This document shows, in pieces, positions 27,840 to 38,154 of a stretch of DNA of 38,548 nucleotides. A program made the translations under genes and the position numbers. This DNA comes from Deltaproteobacteria bacterium. Its GTDB lineage: Bacteria > Desulfobacterota > Desulfarculia > JACQYL01. The stretch spans positions 1-38,548 of the forward strand of contig JACQYL010000064.1 in assembly GCA_016208165.1 (NCBI GenBank). Direction: 5' to 3'. How positions within the stretch are numbered: position 1 is the stretch's first letter; every line of letters begins with the position of its first letter. Below the pieces are notes generated by a model. That model had not been told where the DNA came from. It made no database searches and saw nothing but the letters and a program-made list of their open reading frames with translations.

Positions 27840-28112
27840 GCTCCGTCTCCACTGGTTCCGTGTCGTCTCCTAATCTGCCGGAGAGACGGAGAAAGGGTCG
27901 GGCATGGATTGAAATTCTTCTCGTTGGCGTGGATGGGGCTTACATAACGGAAGGCTGCAAAATCTGTCGGCGTTTTATCGACTATTGTTTTGCACGGCAC
28001 ATGGAAGATGTTATATTTTGCCGAGTGGTTTAAGTGGGATTCGTGCGTCCTCCAGGGCCATGGAACTGAAACAATCATTGCGATAGGAGAAAACGGGGTC
28101 GGAGATAGAGAG

Positions 28113-28529
28113 ATGAAAAGACAACAAGCCATCGAGCTGTTGATCCAAAGCAAGCCTGAGCTTCAGGCCCGGTTTGGCGTTACGCGCCTGGCGCTGTTCG
28201 GTTCCACGGCTCGCGATACGGCAGCCGGGGACAGCGATGTCGACATACTGGTCGCCTTCGACGGCCCGGCCACATCCAAGCGCTATTTCGGGGTGCAGTT
28301 CTATCTTGAGGATCTGCTCGGCTGTCCGGTGGATCTGGTCACCGAAAAAGCCCTGCGGCCGGAGCTGCGCCCTTATATAGAACAGGAGCGGGTCACTGTC
28401 CGATGCCAATTCCTCACGCGAAGACGCGAAGGCGCGAAGGGATATCGAGGAAGTGGCTGCGACCGTAGTCGATACAGCGCTGCAACTGCATCGGGATTTG
28501 GGGCCGGGGTTGCTGGAATCCGTCTATGA
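28113..28529 (+). CDS. Minimal nucleotidyltransferase (MntA-like) with an acquired tail
   Basis: ATG 28113 with ribosome site GGAGATAGAGAG gives 138 residues. The core is the minimal nucleotidyltransferase fold: LALFGSTARDTAAGDSDVDILV contains the G-S-x10-D-x-D metal-binding pattern, and FYLEDLLGCPVDLVTEKALRPELRPYI is its usual end. Such proteins act as AMP-transferring antitoxins of HEPN toxins (MntA/HepT). Normal members stop about where this one reads PYIEQERVTV; here the frame runs on about 35 residues into the next gene in another frame, through a repeated GCGAAG sequence. No HEPN gene follows; a GxxExxY gene does. The tail looks acquired by insertion of that cassette. Confidence 0.82.
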   Translation: MKRQQAIELLIQSKPELQARFGVTRLALFGSTARDTAAGDSDVDILVAFDGPATSKRYFGVQFYLEDLLGCPVDLVTEKALRPELRPYIEQERVTVRCQFLTRRREGAKGYRGSGCDRSRYSAATASGFGAGVAGIRL

Positions 28530-29484: not shown

Positions 29485-30519
29485 GTGCTGGCGAAGTATC
29501 TCTCGCCAGGCAAGGCGGTGAAGAAGCGAATGACAACTCCCAACCAGAACAGCGTATCCCCCCCGGTTTCTGAAGTGTGGTTCTGCTTCAAATCACAGAC
29601 CCTATTCAAGCTGCCGAGTTTCCTTTTCCTAAATCTGATCGCTGATTCACGACCAAACGCGAAAAAAAACAAGAAGTTCGATAGGCTTTCTTGCTGGGCA
29701 GACGATCTGCCAAAGGATCAAAATGACCGAGAGATCGTGGCTCTTATCAAGTATCTTCAAACTAATGTACCCTGGCGAGATCTTTCTCGTTTCGTGACTG
29801 TTTCTGCAGATTCAAATGCCCACATAGATCGCATGTGGAAAGGGAAACGCAACACCCTTGCTTCCTACAGAATCGAGATCCATCAGAAGGAGCTGCCACC
29901 GGAGTTATACCGATATGAGAAATTAAATCAAAAGCGTCTTGAACGTCTTTTCACAGCTGGTGAGCTCTTCTTGTCGTCGCCAAGTAGTTTTAATGATCCA
30001 TTCGACTGCAGTTTTGACGAAGAGACCCGATCGGCCTTTATCGGATGCGGGATGAAATCCTTATGCGCGGAAAGAAACAATATTCTCATGTTCTCACACT
30101 ACGCGGATAATCATCAGGGTGTTTGTCTGGGCTTTGAGCCCGTACAACTCGCTAAATCGATGTCCAACCAAGCTGAAAGCATTGTGGCAGACATCCGGCC
30201 GGTATGGTATTTTAACAAGATGCCGCCAATCGGTTTTAAGTCAGAACCGGCGCTCTGCGCTACGTGCAAGGACGAAGTCTGGAGTTACGAGAAAGAGTAT
30301 CGTCTATTTCTTGCAAAAAGCGGCTCATTGCTCCCTGTAGGATCGTATTCATTCAGCCCCGAGGCTCTGCAGTCCGTGGTTTTCGGCTGCCGCGCCACAC
30401 ATGAAAGCATAGCATTCGTTAAGTCAATATCCAGAGACATAAGGCACCTGAAGTACTACAAAGCCCTCCGTGAACCCAATCAATTCTGCGTGAAATTGCT
30501 GGAAATCCCAAAGTTATGA
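29485..30519 (+). CDS. DUF2971-domain protein, shortened in the middle
   Basis: GTG 29485 gives 344 residues; ATG 29530 is an alternative, neither with a strong ribosome site. Residues about 138-330 match DUF2971: PELYRYEKLNQKRLERLFTAGELFLSSPSSFNDPFDC, later ERNNILMFSHYADNHQGVCLGFEP and DEVWSYEKEYRLF. In the usual domain about 60-80 residues separate NDPFDC from the SERN...MWSHYA motif; here only about 20 do, implying an internal deletion. The N-terminal 120 residues have no recognised family. DUF2971 proteins are common in defence islands, of unknown mechanism. It may not be functional. Confidence 0.65.
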   Translation: MLAKYLSPGKAVKKRMTTPNQNSVSPPVSEVWFCFKSQTLFKLPSFLFLNLIADSRPNAKKNKKFDRLSCWADDLPKDQNDREIVALIKYLQTNVPWRDLSRFVTVSADSNAHIDRMWKGKRNTLASYRIEIHQKELPPELYRYEKLNQKRLERLFTAGELFLSSPSSFNDPFDCSFDEETRSAFIGCGMKSLCAERNNILMFSHYADNHQGVCLGFEPVQLAKSMSNQAESIVADIRPVWYFNKMPPIGFKSEPALCATCKDEVWSYEKEYRLFLAKSGSLLPVGSYSFSPEALQSVVFGCRATHESIAFVKSISRDIRHLKYYKALREPNQFCVKLLEIPKL

Positions 30520-31196: not shown

Positions 31197-31302
31197 CGGG
31201 AGGTAGCGAACGAATTGAATGGCGACCCAAATGGTTTTCCATCCTAAATTCACCATCACCAACCGCATGACCCGTGCAATTACCCGCATCGAGCGGGCGC
31301 GT
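31197..31302. repeat. Left copy of a perfect 106-bp direct repeat
   Basis: Identical base for base to 36868-36973 (offset 5,671). It contains the end of the hsdM reading frame ([15 protein letters not shown], stop) and the first 28 codons of fic. Upstream of it a frame with [14 protein letters not shown] runs into the same hsdM-like end, so the left flank is a foreign or rearranged end. Confidence 0.97.
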
Positions 31303-32268
31303 GGTTTTCTGGAAGCGGCGCAGCTTTCCGCCGACTGGGTGCGCGAGGTGGGCGAACAGGCGTTGATTCTGGAGGCGCACCACACCACCCACATCGAGGG
31401 CACCCGGCTGACGCTGGACCAGGCCGAGCGGCTCTGGAAGGGCGAAGCGGTGCCCGAGGCCGACCCGGACGATGCCCGGGAACTGCTCAACTACCGCACC
31501 GCCTTCGAGTTCGTCTCCGAGTGCCTGGACAGCGGCGACCCGATCACCGAGGGGATGATCCGAGAGATCCACCGCAAGCTGGTGGAGGGCGTGCGCGGCG
31601 GCAGCGCCGCGCCGGGTGAGTACCGGCGCGTTCAGAACTATGTGGTCAACTCCGGCACTGGCCAGGTGATCTACACCCCGCCCACTGCGGTGGAGGTGCC
31701 GGTGATGATGTCGGAGCTGGTGAAGTGGCTGAACGGTGACCTCGATATCCACCCGGCGCTGGTGAGCGGCATCGCCCAGTTTCAGCTGGTGCACATCCAC
31801 CCGTTTCTGGACGGCAACGGCCGCACCTCGCGCCTGCTCTCCACCCTCTGCCTGTACAAGGCCGGGTACGATTTCAAGCGGCTCTTCACCATCAGCGAAT
31901 ACTACGACCGTGACCGCCCGACCTTCTACAAGTCGATCCAGAGCGTGCGCGACCATGGCATGGACATGACCGGCTGGCTCGACTACTTCGTCACCGGTCT
32001 GGAAACCCAAATGGTCGAGGTGCGCGAACGCAGCGAGCAGGTCATCCGCCGCGACGTGCTGGTGAAGCAGCACGGCCTGAACGAGCGCCAGGCGAAGGCG
32101 TTGGGATTATTGATGCGGAAAAATTCGGTGCATATCTCCGAGATTGAACAGCTCTGTCCCGGAGTTTCCCGACGCACGCTGCAACGGGACATGACCGGCC
32201 TGATCGAACTCAATCTTGCCCGCATCACGGGCTCTGCCCGCCAATCCAACTATGAACTCGTCAAATAG
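31219..32268 (+). CDS. Fic-family protein with N-terminal autoinhibitory helix
   Basis: The 349-residue protein has the Fic catalytic motif [12 protein letters not shown] with His194, needed to transfer AMP (or a related group) to a target hydroxyl. An inhibitory helix motif (S/T-x3-E-G/N) is at Thr56-Glu60-Gly61 in TTHIEGT, so it is a self-restrained (class II) Fic. The flap strand QVIYTPP precedes the active site. The C-terminus carries a winged-helix region ([30 protein letters not shown]), suggesting autoregulation or DNA binding. Its start codon overlaps an hsdM-like 3' end, exactly as the right-hand fragment overlaps the intact hsdM, so its native place is probably behind hsdM. Confidence 0.93.
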
Positions 32269-32337: not shown

Positions 32338-32443
32338 ATCTATGACGAAAGCTGTGACATCTTGGGGGCTGACTTGAGGGGTGAGTCGGGGGCTGCGGCG
32401 TTTGGGGCGGCCGGCGACGACACGGACGATCTGATGGCGGAGT

Positions 32444-34444
32444 ATGGATTTGCCGAAGAGCGACCAAGGGGTGAATGAGCAAGATGAACTGCGGCGACTG
32501 CGCGAGGAAAACGCGCGTCTCAAGGCTCTGCTGACCCGGCACGGCATTCCTTGGAAAGAACTGACCTCTCTTGAACCCGTTCCCTCAACGCCGGAACCCG
32601 CTCCGGTCCCATCCCATTTCAGCACCGACGACAAAATCGCCCTGTTCCGTTGTTTGTTCAAAGCGCGCGAGGATGTCTATCCCAAGCGCTGGGAGTCGAG
32701 CAAAGGCATGTCCGGTTACTCACCGGCCTGCGGCAACGAGTGGAAACCCGGTGTCTGCCACAAACCCCGAATCAAGTGCGGCGACTGCAACCAGCGCCGG
32801 TTGCTGCCGGTTACCGATCAGGTGATCTATGACCATTTGGCCGGGAAACAGACCATCGGCGTCTATCCGCTCCTGAGCGATGACAGCTGCTATTTTCTGG
32901 CGGCCGATTTCGACGAGGCTGACTGGCGGGAAGATGCCAAGGCCTTCATGCAATCCTGCCGGGAGCTTGGTATTTCGGCGGCGCTGGAGATTTCCTGCTC
33001 CGGCAACGGCGCACACGCCTGGATCTTCTTTGCCGAACCGGTTCCGGCCCGCGAGGCCCGGCAGCTCGGGGCCGCGCTGATCAGTCATACCTGCGACCGC
33101 ACCCGGCAATTGTCCCTGGTCAGCTACGACCGCCTGTTTCCCAATCAGGACACAATGCCCAAGGGCGGCTTCGGCAACTTGATCGCGCTACCCTTGCAGA
33201 AACAGCCGAGAGAATTGGGTCGCAGTGTGTTCGTCGATGAACAGCTACAACCCTATCCCGATCAGTGGTCCTTTCTGGCATCCATCCAGCCGTTGTCCCG
33301 ACGGGACCTGGAAGACGCCATCCTGCGGGCCAGCGGCGGTGGTCATCCTCTGGACGTGGCCTTTGTGACCCAGGAAGAGGACAGTAAACCTTGGCAGCGT
33401 TCTTCCCTTGTACCAGCCCGGATAGCTGGCCCTCTGCCGGAAGCGCTGACCCTGGTGTTGGCCAACCAGATTTTCATCGCCAAGGCTGATCTGCCGCAGC
33501 CGCTGGCCAACCGCCTGATCCGGCTCGCCGCCTTTCAGAACCCGGAATTCTACAAGGCCCAGGCTATGCGCCTGCCGGTCTGGAACAAGCCGCGCATCAT
33601 CGGCTGTGCAGACAACTATCCCCAGCACATCGGCCTGCCGCGTGGCTGCCTCGATGCGGTGCACGACCTGTTACAGGAAAACGACATCCGTCCGGAGCTA
33701 CAGGATGAGCGCCTGCCGGGAAGGAAGGTAGCTGTCAAGTTTACCGGCACCTTGCGCAAAGATCAAAAGACGGCGGTGCGGGAGATGCTCAAGAACGATG
33801 TTGGCGTGCTCTGCGCCCCGACGGCCTTCGGCAAGACTGTCACCGCCGCCGCCCTGATCGTCCGGCGTAAGGTGAGCACGCTGGTGCTGGTGCACCGCAC
33901 CGAACTGCTGCGTCAGTGGCAGGAGCGGCTGACCGGATTCCTGGAAACTCCGAAAGGCGGGCTGGGTGTCATCGGCGGCGGCAAGAAGAAGCCTTCCGGC
34001 AAGATCGACATCGCCGTCATGCAGTCGCTCTCTCGCCGGGAGGATTTGGGTGAACTGCTGGACCACTACGGGCAGATCATCGTCGATGAGTGCCATCACC
34101 TGTCGGCCTTTTCCTTCGAGGCGATCCTCAAGCAGGCAAAGGCGAAATTTGTGGTTGGTCTGACGGCCACGCCGATACGACGGGACGGTCATCAGCCGAT
34201 CATCTTCATGCAGTGCGGACCGATCCGCCACAGTGCCGCGAGACCCGATACCGCCCCGGCTCAACTGGAGGTCTGGCCCAAAGTGCTGCCCGCGCCGGAG
34301 ATTCCGCTGGATTCACCGATTCAGGATGTGTTCCGCATCCTTTCCAACGATGCCAACCGTAACCGGCGCATCGCCGAGGATGTGCTGGCCGCCTATCGGG
34401 AAGGGCGCAAGGTGCTGATGTTGACCGAGCGGACGGACCATTAG
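32444..34444 (+). CDS. TOTE-type primase-helicase, cut by an in-frame amber codon
   Basis: A 666-residue protein with an N-terminal coiled coil (LRRLREENARLKALL), a zinc-binding Cys cluster (CGNEW...CHKPRIKCGDC), and an archaeo-eukaryotic primase domain as found in TOTE conflict systems: catalytic Asp155 and Asp157 in LAADFDEADW, His191 in SGNGAHAW, then LFPNQDTMPKGGFGNLIALP. The helicase follows: Walker A APTAFGKT (Lys464), DECHH at 548-552, GLTATPIRRDG. The frame hits TAG at 34442 just inside the second RecA domain (VLMLTERTDH), where relatives have a hydrophobic residue; the downstream frame is open and continues the domain. The simplest reading is a nonsense change from TTG. The protein would be truncated unless suppressed. 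Confidence 0.85.
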   Translation: MDLPKSDQGVNEQDELRRLREENARLKALLTRHGIPWKELTSLEPVPSTPEPAPVPSHFSTDDKIALFRCLFKAREDVYPKRWESSKGMSGYSPACGNEWKPGVCHKPRIKCGDCNQRRLLPVTDQVIYDHLAGKQTIGVYPLLSDDSCYFLAADFDEADWREDAKAFMQSCRELGISAALEISCSGNGAHAWIFFAEPVPAREARQLGAALISHTCDRTRQLSLVSYDRLFPNQDTMPKGGFGNLIALPLQKQPRELGRSVFVDEQLQPYPDQWSFLASIQPLSRRDLEDAILRASGGGHPLDVAFVTQEEDSKPWQRSSLVPARIAGPLPEALTLVLANQIFIAKADLPQPLANRLIRLAAFQNPEFYKAQAMRLPVWNKPRIIGCADNYPQHIGLPRGCLDAVHDLLQENDIRPELQDERLPGRKVAVKFTGTLRKDQKTAVREMLKNDVGVLCAPTAFGKTVTAAALIVRRKVSTLVLVHRTELLRQWQERLTGFLETPKGGLGVIGGGKKKPSGKIDIAVMQSLSRREDLGELLDHYGQIIVDECHHLSAFSFEAILKQAKAKFVVGLTATPIRRDGHQPIIFMQCGPIRHSAARPDTAPAQLEVWPKVLPAPEIPLDSPIQDVFRILSNDANRNRRIAEDVLAAYREGRKVLMLTERTDH

Positions 34445-34450
34445 CCGCTC

Positions 34451-35422
34451 TTGCGGGAGGCGCTGGGGGATGAGATGGAACACTGCTTTGTCGTGCACGG
34501 CCGTTTGTCAAAGAAACAGCGAACGGCGGTGTTTGCCGCACTGGATGCGTTGGACGAATCCGCTCCGAGGGTTATACTCGCCACCGGCCGCCTGATCGGC
34601 GAGGGTTTTGACCATCCACCATTGGACACGCTGGTACTGGGCATGCCGATTTCCTGGAAAGGGACCTTGCAGCAGTATGCAAAAGCGCTTATCGATGGCA
34701 ACGCCATCTGGACGGAGCTTAAGGCGGATTTGGAACTCCTGTCGTTCGGCAAGTGCTGGTATTCCGAGGCACGGGAAAAAGTCTCCCATTATCATGTTGA
34801 CCATTTTCGTCCCAAGAAACAATGCATGGATGCGAATGGTTCCATAACATGCGGTTATTGGTGGCTGGCCTATGATTGGAAAAATTACCGCGTCAGTGGC
34901 AGCGTGATCAATACGGCCAAGCGCGATAAATTTGCTGTTTACAGAAACAGAGCCGAAGGCCCGGATACGCCCATTGAAGATGAGCTGATCTATCTGCTGG
35001 ATCCGCTCAACAGGGATGACGTGTGTTTGTTGACATTTAACAACAACGGCGAAGCCATGCCCTTGAACCCGGATGAAGATGCATGGGATCACAAGCGGGC
35101 TATGTACACGATCGACGTATTGGATCTGAACAATGCAAAACTGCGTCGAGCCAGAAAAATCAAATGGAAGGAAATATCGCAGGCGATAGACACCATCAAC
35201 GCGTACCAAAAGCAGTATAACGAACAGCCTTCCGTCAGACTTCAAACACAGCTGCATGAATTCAAAAAACGCACCCGGGAACTGATATCTCCGACAAGTG
35301 AGCTTTCGTGTACCTATCGCGCCTGTCTGAGGGCCAGTCGAGAGGATTGGGCCATTGATATTTTGCAAACCCATTTCAATATCGAGCAACTGCAACAAGA
35401 ATACAGGGAGAGCATGGGATGA
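34451..35422 (+). CDS. Helicase C-terminal remnant fused in frame to an HNH endonuclease
   Basis: Same frame as the gene before the amber codon. Residues 1-75 continue the second RecA domain (ATGRLIGEGFDHPPLDTLVLGMP, ISWKGTLQQYA). In intact helicases the next residues are like GRLHR (motif VI); here, at about base 34680, the sequence jumps to KALIDGNAIWTELKADLELLSFGKCWYSEA, the start region of an HNH nuclease with VSHYHVDHFRPK and GYWWLAYDWKNYR. The His-Val-Asp-His motif is present; of the usual zinc Cys pairs only one Cys (KCW) is seen. The HNH stop overlaps the hsdM start (ATGA). A deletion seems to have removed the helicase end and the HNH start, perhaps with genes between. Translation would need read-through or the TTG at 34451. 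Confidence 0.8.
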   Translation: MREALGDEMEHCFVVHGRLSKKQRTAVFAALDALDESAPRVILATGRLIGEGFDHPPLDTLVLGMPISWKGTLQQYAKALIDGNAIWTELKADLELLSFGKCWYSEAREKVSHYHVDHFRPKKQCMDANGSITCGYWWLAYDWKNYRVSGSVINTAKRDKFAVYRNRAEGPDTPIEDELIYLLDPLNRDDVCLLTFNNNGEAMPLNPDEDAWDHKRAMYTIDVLDLNNAKLRRARKIKWKEISQAIDTINAYQKQYNEQPSVRLQTQLHEFKKRTRELISPTSELSCTYRACLRASREDWAIDILQTHFNIEQLQQEYRESMG

Positions 35423-36918
35423 ACACGGCCAACATTGTCCAGAAGATATGGAGTTACTGCGATGTGCTGCGCGATGTGGGCGTGAGCTACGGCGATTATC
35501 TGGAGCAGCTCACCTACCTGCTGTTCCTCAAAATGGCCGACGAATATGCCAAACCGCCGCATAAACGGGATATCGGCATTCCAAAGGAATACACCTGGCC
35601 TGAGCTGAAAAAGCGGCGCGGCGCGGCGCTTGAAACCTTCTATGTCAAGCTGCTGGGTGAACTCGGCCGGCAAAAGGGTATGCTGGGCCAGGTGTTCACC
35701 AAGTCGCAGAACAAGATCCAGGACCCGGCCATGCTCTATCGCGTCATCGACATGATCGACAAAGAGCAGTGGACCCTCATGGGCACGGATGTCAAGGGTG
35801 ATATTTATGAGGGACTTCTGGCGAAAAACGCCGAGGACGTTAAATCTGGGGCCGGTCAATATTTCACGCCCCGGCCGCTGATCCGGACCATTGTCGAGTG
35901 CGTGCGGCCCGAGACCGAGAAAACCATTGCAGACCCGGCCTGCGGCACAGGCGGCTTTTTCCTAGGCGCCTATGAGTTCATTTCCAAAGACTGGGAATTG
36001 AACAAGGCGCAAAAGGCGTTTCTAAAATTTAAGACCTTTTACGGCAACGAATACGTCGCCAATACCCGCCGCCTGGCCTTGATGAACATGCTCCTGCATG
36101 GAATCGGCGATATGGACGCCGAACCTTCCATCGAACCGACCGATGCCCTGATCGCTCCGCCGAAACAAACTTTTGACTATGTGCTGACCAACCCGCCGTT
36201 TGGCAAAAAAAGCGCCATCACCATAACCAATGGAGAAGGCAAGGCGGAAAGGGAAGATTTCACTTACAACCGTCAGGATTTTTGGGTGACGACCTCCAAC
36301 AAACAACTCAATTTCGTCCAGCATGTGCGCGCCATGCTGAAAACCACGGGCAAGGCGGCGATTGTGGTGCCGGACAATGTGCTCTTTGAAGGCGGCGCCG
36401 GTGAAACTGTGCGCCGCAAGTTCTTCGAGACCACCGATCTGCACACGGTTCTGCGCCTGCCCACAGGCATTTTTTATGCGCATGGGGTCAAGGCCAATGT
36501 GCTTTTTTTCGATAACCGCCCGGCCGCGAAAGCGCCGCAAACCAAAGACGTCTGGTTCTATGACTACCGCACCAACATCCACCATACGTTAAAGAAGAAG
36601 TCGCTTCGCTTTGAGGATCTGCAGGAATTCGTCGCGCTGTACAATCCGGAAAACCGCCACATGCGCAAGGAAACCTGGCATCCGGAAATTAACCCCGAGG
36701 GCCGGTGGCGTAAGTTTCATTACAAGGATATCACCGATCGCGACAAGGCCAGCCTTGACATATCATGGCTGAAGGACGCCAATCTGACCGATTTGGACAA
36801 TCTGCCGGACCCGGAAGTGCTGGCGGAAGAAATCGTCGAAACCATAGAGGCGGCGTTGGCCAGTTTCCGGGAGGTAGCGAACGAATTGAATGGCGACCCA
36901 AATGGTTTTCCATCCTAA
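35419..36918 (+). CDS. hsdM: Type I restriction-modification methyltransferase subunit HsdM
   Basis: A complete 499-residue N6-adenine methyltransferase. The N-terminal helical domain begins IVQKIWSYCDVLRDVGVSYGDYLEQLTYLLFLKM; the AdoMet motif is DPACGTGGF at residues 172-180, and the catalytic motif IV is NPPFG at 258-262. The C-terminal segment PDPEVLAEEIVETIEAALASF is typical. With an HsdS subunit it would methylate adenine at a bipartite site. Neither hsdS nor hsdR is in the window; a fic fragment follows directly, sharing the last 29 bases of the frame. It starts within the HNH stop (ATGA). Confidence 0.95.
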   Translation: MNTANIVQKIWSYCDVLRDVGVSYGDYLEQLTYLLFLKMADEYAKPPHKRDIGIPKEYTWPELKKRRGAALETFYVKLLGELGRQKGMLGQVFTKSQNKIQDPAMLYRVIDMIDKEQWTLMGTDVKGDIYEGLLAKNAEDVKSGAGQYFTPRPLIRTIVECVRPETEKTIADPACGTGGFFLGAYEFISKDWELNKAQKAFLKFKTFYGNEYVANTRRLALMNMLLHGIGDMDAEPSIEPTDALIAPPKQTFDYVLTNPPFGKKSAITITNGEGKAEREDFTYNRQDFWVTTSNKQLNFVQHVRAMLKTTGKAAIVVPDNVLFEGGAGETVRRKFFETTDLHTVLRLPTGIFYAHGVKANVLFFDNRPAAKAPQTKDVWFYDYRTNIHHTLKKKSLRFEDLQEFVALYNPENRHMRKETWHPEINPEGRWRKFHYKDITDRDKASLDISWLKDANLTDLDNLPDPEVLAEEIVETIEAALASFREVANELNGDPNGFPS

Positions 36919-37137: not shown

Positions 37138-38154
37138 ATGAAATATCAACCGCCCTACACCATCACGCCGGCGATTGTGAATCTGGTTGCCGAGATCGGC
37201 GAAACGATCGGCCGCTACACTGTGCTGGCCGAACAGAACCTGACCCCGCGCCTGCGCCGGGAGAACCGCATCCGTACCATCCAGGCCTCGCTGGCCATTG
37301 AGAACAACACGCTCACCCTTGAACAGGTGACCGCCGTTATCGAGGGCAAGCGGGTGTTGGGGCACCCCCGCGAGATTCAGGAAGTGCGTAACGCCTTTGC
37401 AACCTACGAAGCCATGGAAGACTGGGACGCCAGTGCCGAGGAAGACCTGCTGGCGGCTCACGAGTTGCTGATGCGCGGGCTGGTGGATGAAACGGGTCGA
37501 TATCGATCCGGCGGGGTTGGCATCTTTCGGGGAGAGCAGCTGGTGCACATGGCTCCTCCTGCTGATCGCGTGCCCAAACTGATCGCGGATCTGCTTGATT
37601 GGCTTGCAACGACTCCCGAGCATCCGTTGGTGGCCAGTTGCGTCTTTCATTACGAGTTCGAATTTATCCACCCCTTTGCCGACGGCAACGGGCGGATGGG
37701 ACGGTTGTGGCAAACCCTGATTCTCCGGAACTGGAAGCCGCTGTTGGCTTACCTGCCGGTGGAGACAGTGATCCGCGAGCGGCAGGAGGACTATTACCGC
37801 GTGCTGGCGGTGGCTGACCAGCAGGCAGACGCCACTCCGTTTATCGAATTCATGCTGAGCGCGTTGCGCGATGCCGTCCGCGAGGCTGTGGCGACCGACC
37901 AAGTAGGCGATCAAGTAACCGACCAAGTAGCGGCATTGATCCGTGTGATTGGGACCGCCGAGCTGGGCAGCAACGACTTGATGCGGGCTTTGGGTTTATC
38001 ACACCGTCCCACGTTCCGGAATAATTACCTCAACCCGGCGCTGGAAGACGAATGGATCGAGCGCACGCAACCCGATTCCCCGCGCAGCCCGACTCAGCGC
38101 TATCGATTGACCGGCAAAGGTCAGCGTTGGTTGCTACAACATGCCGACGGGTAG
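37138..38154 (+). CDS. Second Fic-family protein, unrelated subgroup
   Basis: The 338-residue protein has an ideal ribosome site (GGGAGG, 5-6 bases before ATG). The Fic motif is HPFADGNGRMGR with His178; the inhibitory helix motif is Ser51-Glu55-Asn56 in SLAIENN, so it too is self-restrained. The flap is RGEQLVHMAPP. The C-terminus has a repeated D-Q-V linker (DQVGDQVTDQV) leading to a winged-helix-like domain (LGLSHRPTFRNNYLNPALEDEWIERT), as in many Fic proteins with DNA-binding tails. It differs from the 31219 protein throughout, so the two are not a recent duplication. Confidence 0.93.
   Translation: MKYQPPYTITPAIVNLVAEIGETIGRYTVLAEQNLTPRLRRENRIRTIQASLAIENNTLTLEQVTAVIEGKRVLGHPREIQEVRNAFATYEAMEDWDASAEEDLLAAHELLMRGLVDETGRYRSGGVGIFRGEQLVHMAPPADRVPKLIADLLDWLATTPEHPLVASCVFHYEFEFIHPFADGNGRMGRLWQTLILRNWKPLLAYLPVETVIRERQEDYYRVLAVADQQADATPFIEFMLSALRDAVREAVATDQVGDQVTDQVAALIRVIGTAELGSNDLMRALGLSHRPTFRNNYLNPALEDEWIERTQPDSPRSPTQRYRLTGKGQRWLLQHADG

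What the first reader, a model, noticed from the sequence alone, without database searches (positions are those of the whole stretch)
32444..35422. TOTE-type primase-helicase with an amber codon and an in-frame HNH fusion
One continuous frame, interrupted only by TAG 34442, joins a primase, an SF2 helicase and an HNH nuclease. At about 34680 the helicase stops before motif VI and HNH sequence begins without a frame change. It is either decay by deletion plus nonsense mutation, or a chimeric effector expressed as two polypeptides or by amber suppression. Primase-helicase-nuclease as one chain in front of hsdM would be a new combination.
Basis: partly seen in the sequence, partly recalled or inferred. 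Interest (0 to 1): 0.72.

Follow-up and report, generated by a model that had tools for sequence, protein, structure and literature searches.

The report
Decayed primase-helicase fused by deletion
Two ordinary bacterial anti-phage genes were cut and joined by a deletion, and the result also carries a premature stop, so this looks like a freshly broken defence-island remnant rather than a new fused enzyme.

Summary
One frame (ATG 32444 to TGA 35420-35422), broken only by TAG 34442-34444, joins an AEP-TOTE primase and SF2 helicase to a PtuB-like HNH protein. The switch is at 34677-34680.

Intact relatives of both halves were found. The primase-helicase (86% and 76% identical) is a complete ~800-aa gene with a sense codon at the TAG site, continuing through helicase motif VI. 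The HNH protein (74% identical) is a complete, separate 286-aa gene in an hsdR-hsdS-ptuA-ptuB-hsdM operon.

So the window holds a deletion joint at a 3-nt microhomology. It removed ~51 aa of helicase, ~39 aa of PtuB and, if the ancestral order matched the relative, ptuA, hsdS and hsdR. None of these three was found elsewhere in this genome. The helicase's upstream partner gene is also gone except for ~16 codons.

No match in ~400 same-phylum genomes, 72,556 plasmids, 50,697 phages or IMG/VR spans the junction. No CUA tRNA was found, and TAG ends other genes here. Selection tests show no relaxation yet, so the decay is recent.

Verdict: recent gene decay, low interest. Primase-helicase-nuclease chains already exist, with a PLD-like nuclease.

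The parts
32409..32475 (+). Remnant (last ~16 codons plus a short run-on) of the small partner gene that precedes intact relatives of the primase-helicase
   Evidence: DNA alignment to L045 and L046 starts at 32403 and 32409; no other copy in the genome
32444..34441 (+). AEP-TOTE primase and SF2 helicase up to the amber codon (666 aa)
   Evidence: 86% identical to an intact 797-aa gene in G076
34442..34444 (+). In-frame TAG stop; a sense codon in both intact relatives
34445..34679 (+). Continuation of the helicase C-terminal domain, cut off before motif VI
   Evidence: helicase homologues match post-TAG residues 1 to ~82
34677..34680 (+). Deletion joint; TGC shared by both parents
34680..35422 (+). 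ptuB-like HNH gene without its first ~39 codons
   Evidence: profile from position 36 on; intact 286-aa relative in G019
35419..36918 (+). hsdM, type I DNA methyltransferase subunit, apparently orphaned
   Evidence: no hsdS in the genome, no match to the related hsdR

Best explanation
A defence island held a stand-alone primase-helicase gene of the AEP-TOTE family with its small upstream partner, and a type I restriction-modification operon carrying an embedded Septu module (ptuA-ptuB). Illegitimate recombination at a 3-nt microhomology joined the helicase, just before motif VI, to codon ~40 of ptuB and removed everything between. The two reading frames happened to match. A separate deletion removed nearly all of the upstream partner gene, and an amber mutation arose within the helicase C-terminal domain. 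The result is a recent pseudogene. At most it makes a 666-aa primase plus an incomplete helicase. The HNH remnant is not expected to work without its N-terminus and without PtuA, and hsdM is left as an orphan. Shown: both parents, the joint, both losses, and absence of the partner genes from the assembly. Inferred: order and number of events, loss of function, and that the ancestral gene order in this lineage was that of the relative.
For: Intact primase-helicases: 797 aa in G076 (86%) and 812 aa in G014 (76%), without internal stop and continuing ...QQYAGRLHR. Intact ptuB in G019: 286 aa, in hsdR-hsdS-ptuA-ptuB-hsdM. Window DNA matches the primase-helicase parent from 32403 to 34680 at 83% and the ptuB-hsdM parent from 34706 to 36890 at 80%, with only TGC shared at the joint. 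Helicase_C (PF00271) is found in L002 and L003 but not in the window proteins. The window genome has no match to that hsdR, to PtuA, to any hsdS (PF01420; matches in G019 and G076) or to the partner gene (matches in G076 and G014). No match spans the junction in plasmids, phages, viral contigs, 63 genomes of the class or 395 of the phylum. No CUA tRNA was found and TAG ends several other ORFs of the window.
Against: Selection statistics show no relaxation. On the window branch nonsynonymous/synonymous changes are 35/82 against 41.5/88.5 on the branch of the intact relative (Fisher p 0.78), and apart from the TAG the frame is clean. This fits decay only if the lesions are recent; the neutral fraction of the branch is at most about 6-10%. 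Reads were not available, so neither the TAG nor the joint could be confirmed at read level. The genome is about 95.5% complete, so an absent gene may simply not be assembled. The searches for hsdR and PtuA had no positive-control genome in the same call.
Confidence: 0.92

Rival explanations
1. A functional chimeric effector: primase-helicase and HNH are made as one chain by amber read-through, or as two polypeptides by re-initiation after the TAG, and act with HsdM.
For: The frame is continuous except for the TAG; primase, helicase N-domain and HNH regions show strong constraint; the HNH stop overlaps the hsdM start.
Against: The constraint and the overlap with hsdM are inherited from the separate parents (L044 has the same overlap). 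Motif VI and the PtuB N-terminus are missing, PtuA, hsdS and hsdR were not found in the genome, no CUA tRNA was found, and no other record has the fusion.
Confidence: 0.03
2. A sequencing or assembly artefact: the TAG is an error, or the joint is a chimeric contig.
For: The genome is a draft of 142 contigs with 4.4% estimated contamination; reads were not available.
Against: The joint shares only about 3 nt between the parents, much too short for a k-mer or overlap misjoin; no intact ptuA, hsdS or hsdR sits on another contig; no second copy of the primase-helicase exists; the TAG differs from both intact relatives by two bases; an independent deletion upstream points to real decay.
Confidence: 0.05

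Closest known systems
AEP-TOTE primase / SF2 helicase proteins (Pfam PF22548; TOTE = TPR, OB, TBP, Effector, as cited in PMC12458937)
   Same: Primase domain and helicase N-domain match in full; 86% identity to an intact chromosomal copy and 60-67% to plasmid copies annotated as DEAD/DEAH helicases
   Different: The window copy has a premature stop and lacks helicase motif VI and the C-terminus. Intact close relatives carry no nuclease; more distant ones carry a C-terminal PLD-like domain; none seen carries an HNH domain
Septu PtuB HNH nuclease (PADLOC PtuB; NCBIfam TIGR02646 / NF041761)
   Same: HNH core and C-terminus, 74% identical to an intact PtuB
   Different: First ~39 residues missing, no start codon of its own at the natural place, and no PtuA found in the genome
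Type I restriction-modification operon with embedded ptuA-ptuB (G019; similar in L014, L016, L018, L019, L020, L023)
   Same: ptuB directly upstream of, and overlapping, hsdM as in G019
   Different: hsdR, hsdS and ptuA are missing in the window

Membership tests
AEP-TOTE primase-helicase protein | AEP primase domain of PF22548 | tested here: met
   E 4.7e-103, 344 bits against a cut-off of 27
AEP-TOTE primase-helicase protein | Complete SF2 helicase, motifs I to VI | tested here: not met
   Stop at 34442; the helicase reading ends before GRLHR of motif VI; no Helicase_C match although L002 and L003 have it
TOTE conflict system | TPR, OB and TBP partner genes next to the effector (definition as cited in PMC12458937) | tested here: not met
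   Pfam scans of the nearest genes gave Fic, N6_Mtase/HsdM and DUF2971 only; not every small flanking ORF was scanned. The partner gene of intact relatives has no Pfam match
Septu (PtuAB) | Complete PtuB HNH nuclease | tested here: not met
   Profile matched only from position 36 of 272; the intact relative matches from position 1
Septu (PtuAB) | PtuA ATPase partner, whose ATPase motifs are needed for defence (PMC13096335) | tested here: not met
   No match to the related PtuA in the genome
Type I restriction-modification system | hsdM together with hsdS and hsdR | tested here: not met
   hsdM present; no hsdS domain in the genome, no match to the related hsdR
Amber-suppressed gene | A tRNA that reads UAG, or TAG not used as a stop | tested here: not met
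   No CUA anticodon among 41 called tRNAs; TAG ends other ORFs of the window
Functional in-frame fusion gene | The same junction kept in other genomes | tested here: not met
   No match spans the junction

The most novel reading that the evidence does not exclude
The newly formed primase-helicase-HNH chimera, or its two pieces, is expressed together with HsdM and still acts, for example the truncated primase alone or the HNH part without PtuA.
Probability: 0.03. Interest if true: 0.55.

Novelty: new member of a known kind. Interest (0 to 1): 0.12.

Why it matters
It shows how a deletion in a defence island can create a long open frame that looks like a new fused effector. Comparison with intact relatives of each half settled the question, whereas dN/dS alone would have misled. 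The side observation, a Septu module lodged inside type I restriction-modification operons of several phyla, is probably of more lasting use.

Tried and rejected
Amber suppression: rejected, since no CUA tRNA was found and TAG is an ordinary stop. The 42nd tRNA match (L100) is short and ARAGORN does not call it; by eye it has no proper anticodon arm.

Same fusion in other genomes: searched in plasmids, phages, viral contigs, class and phylum; no match spans the junction. Matches that reach query residues 85-101 are intact helicases in the cases read (L059; L103-L107, L109, L110, L111). The match in G312 (residues 17-100) was not read.

Relaxed selection: tested and not seen. This dates the lesions as recent and does not argue for function.

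Primase-helicase-nuclease as a new architecture: rejected in general, because L006, L007 and L008 have AEP-TOTE, helicase and PLDc_2 in one chain.

Structure prediction was not used, because it would not tell a pseudogene from a working chimera. The original TOTE paper (cited as Aravind, Iyer et al. 2022) was not found in the library, so its definition is taken second-hand from PMC12458937.

Full report
Observation. Translating 32444-35422 gives one frame with a single internal stop, TAG 34442-34444, ending at TGA 35420-35422. The part before the TAG carries an AEP-TOTE primase (residues 63-291, E 4.7e-103) and the N-terminal SF2 helicase domain (436-579). The part after the TAG continues the helicase to ...GEGFDHPPLDTLVLGMPISWKGTLQQYA and then becomes PtuB-like HNH sequence, matched by PADLOC PtuB profiles from profile position 36 onward.

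Parents of the two halves. The closest intact primase-helicases lie in G076 (86% identity, 797 aa) and G014 (76%, 812 aa). Neither has an internal stop. Both have a sense codon at the TAG site and run on through GRLHR (motif VI); the G076 protein ends about 51 residues after the point of the joint. The closest intact HNH lies in G019 (74% identity, 286 aa, own ATG) in an operon hsdR-hsdS-ptuA-ptuB-hsdM. Window DNA follows the first parent from 32403 to 34680 at 83% identity and the second from 34706 to 36890 at 80%. At the joint the parents share only TGC. The window therefore holds a deletion joint: about 51 residues of the helicase and about 39 of PtuB are missing. If the ancestral order was as in G019, ptuA, hsdS and hsdR were lost with them (inference).

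Other losses. In G076, G014 and an Azotobacter plasmid, a gene of about 180-200 aa of unknown family sits directly before the primase-helicase. In the window only its last ~16 codons remain. No other copy was found in the genome by a search that did match in G076 and G014. The genome has no match to the related hsdR or PtuA, and no hsdS domain at all (matched in G019 and G076). The hsdM gene at 35419-36918 is thus an apparent orphan, although it is itself well conserved against G019 (dN/dS 0.061). The genome is about 95.5% complete, so absence carries that uncertainty.

Is the fusion seen elsewhere? The post-TAG protein or its junction part was searched against plasmids, phages, viral contigs, 63 genomes of the class and 395 of the phylum. 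Matches fall into two sets: helicases covering query residues up to about 82, and separate HNH proteins starting at about residue 57 or later. None spans the junction.

Amber codon. RF00005 gave 42 tRNA matches in the genome. ARAGORN called 41 of them, none with a CUA anticodon; the remaining one is short and not called. TAG ends several other ORFs of the window. Read-through is not indicated.

Selection. Between window and G076 the primase-helicase has dN/dS 0.115. By parsimony with G014 as outgroup, the window branch has 35 nonsynonymous and 82 synonymous changes and the G076 branch 41.5 and 88.5 (Fisher p 0.78). If part of the window branch evolved neutrally, that part is at most about 6-10% of the branch. 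The lesions are therefore recent. The clean frame and low dN/dS reflect history before the damage and do not argue for function now.

Artefact. Reads were not available. A misassembly is unlikely because the parents share only about 3 nt at the joint, no unfused counterpart of the missing genes lies elsewhere in the assembly, and an independent deletion is seen upstream.

Comparison with known systems. PF22548 proteins with a C-terminal nuclease in the same chain already exist: L006, L007 and L008 have AEP-TOTE, helicase and PLDc_2. TOTE systems are defined by TPR, OB, TBP and effector genes (PMC12458937). None of those partners was found beside the window gene, so only the protein family applies, not the system. 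In the Septu system of E. coli, both the PtuA ATPase motifs and the PtuB HNH motif are needed for defence (PMC13096335); PtuA was not found here.

Conclusion. The finding is a real but ordinary case of gene decay in a defence island. It is best described as a recent deletion-fusion pseudogene of an AEP-TOTE primase-helicase and a Septu ptuB gene, upstream of an orphan hsdM.

Noticed in passing
L044 181-8716 (G019); also L014, L016, L018, L019, L020, L023: Septu ptuA-ptuB genes lie inside or beside type I restriction-modification operons, next to hsdS and hsdM, in several phyla. Two literature searches found no paper describing this arrangement (titles only).
   Followed up: partly
L045 7394-7999, L046 759-1322, L111 5325-5870: A gene of about 180-200 aa without any Pfam match directly precedes intact AEP-TOTE primase-helicase genes and overlaps their start; it may be an undescribed partner. 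An Aeromonas plasmid copy (L110) has an NYN-domain gene in that place instead.
   Followed up: partly
window 31219-32268 and 37138-38154: Two different Fic-domain genes flank the remnant; the second resembles (68% DNA identity) a truncated fic gene that precedes the primase-helicase in G076.
   Followed up: no
window 27990-28529 and 29485-30519: Matches to PADLOC candidate defence families PDC-S09 and PDC-S31 (DUF2971), consistent with a defence island.
   Followed up: no
L006, L007, L008: More distant AEP-TOTE primase-helicases carry a C-terminal PLD-like nuclease domain; L007 also has an N-terminal DUF1653.
   Followed up: partly
L100 (G000 C92:3775-3840): A short tRNA-like match (40.9 bits) that ARAGORN does not call; probably a degenerate tRNA.
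   Followed up: partly
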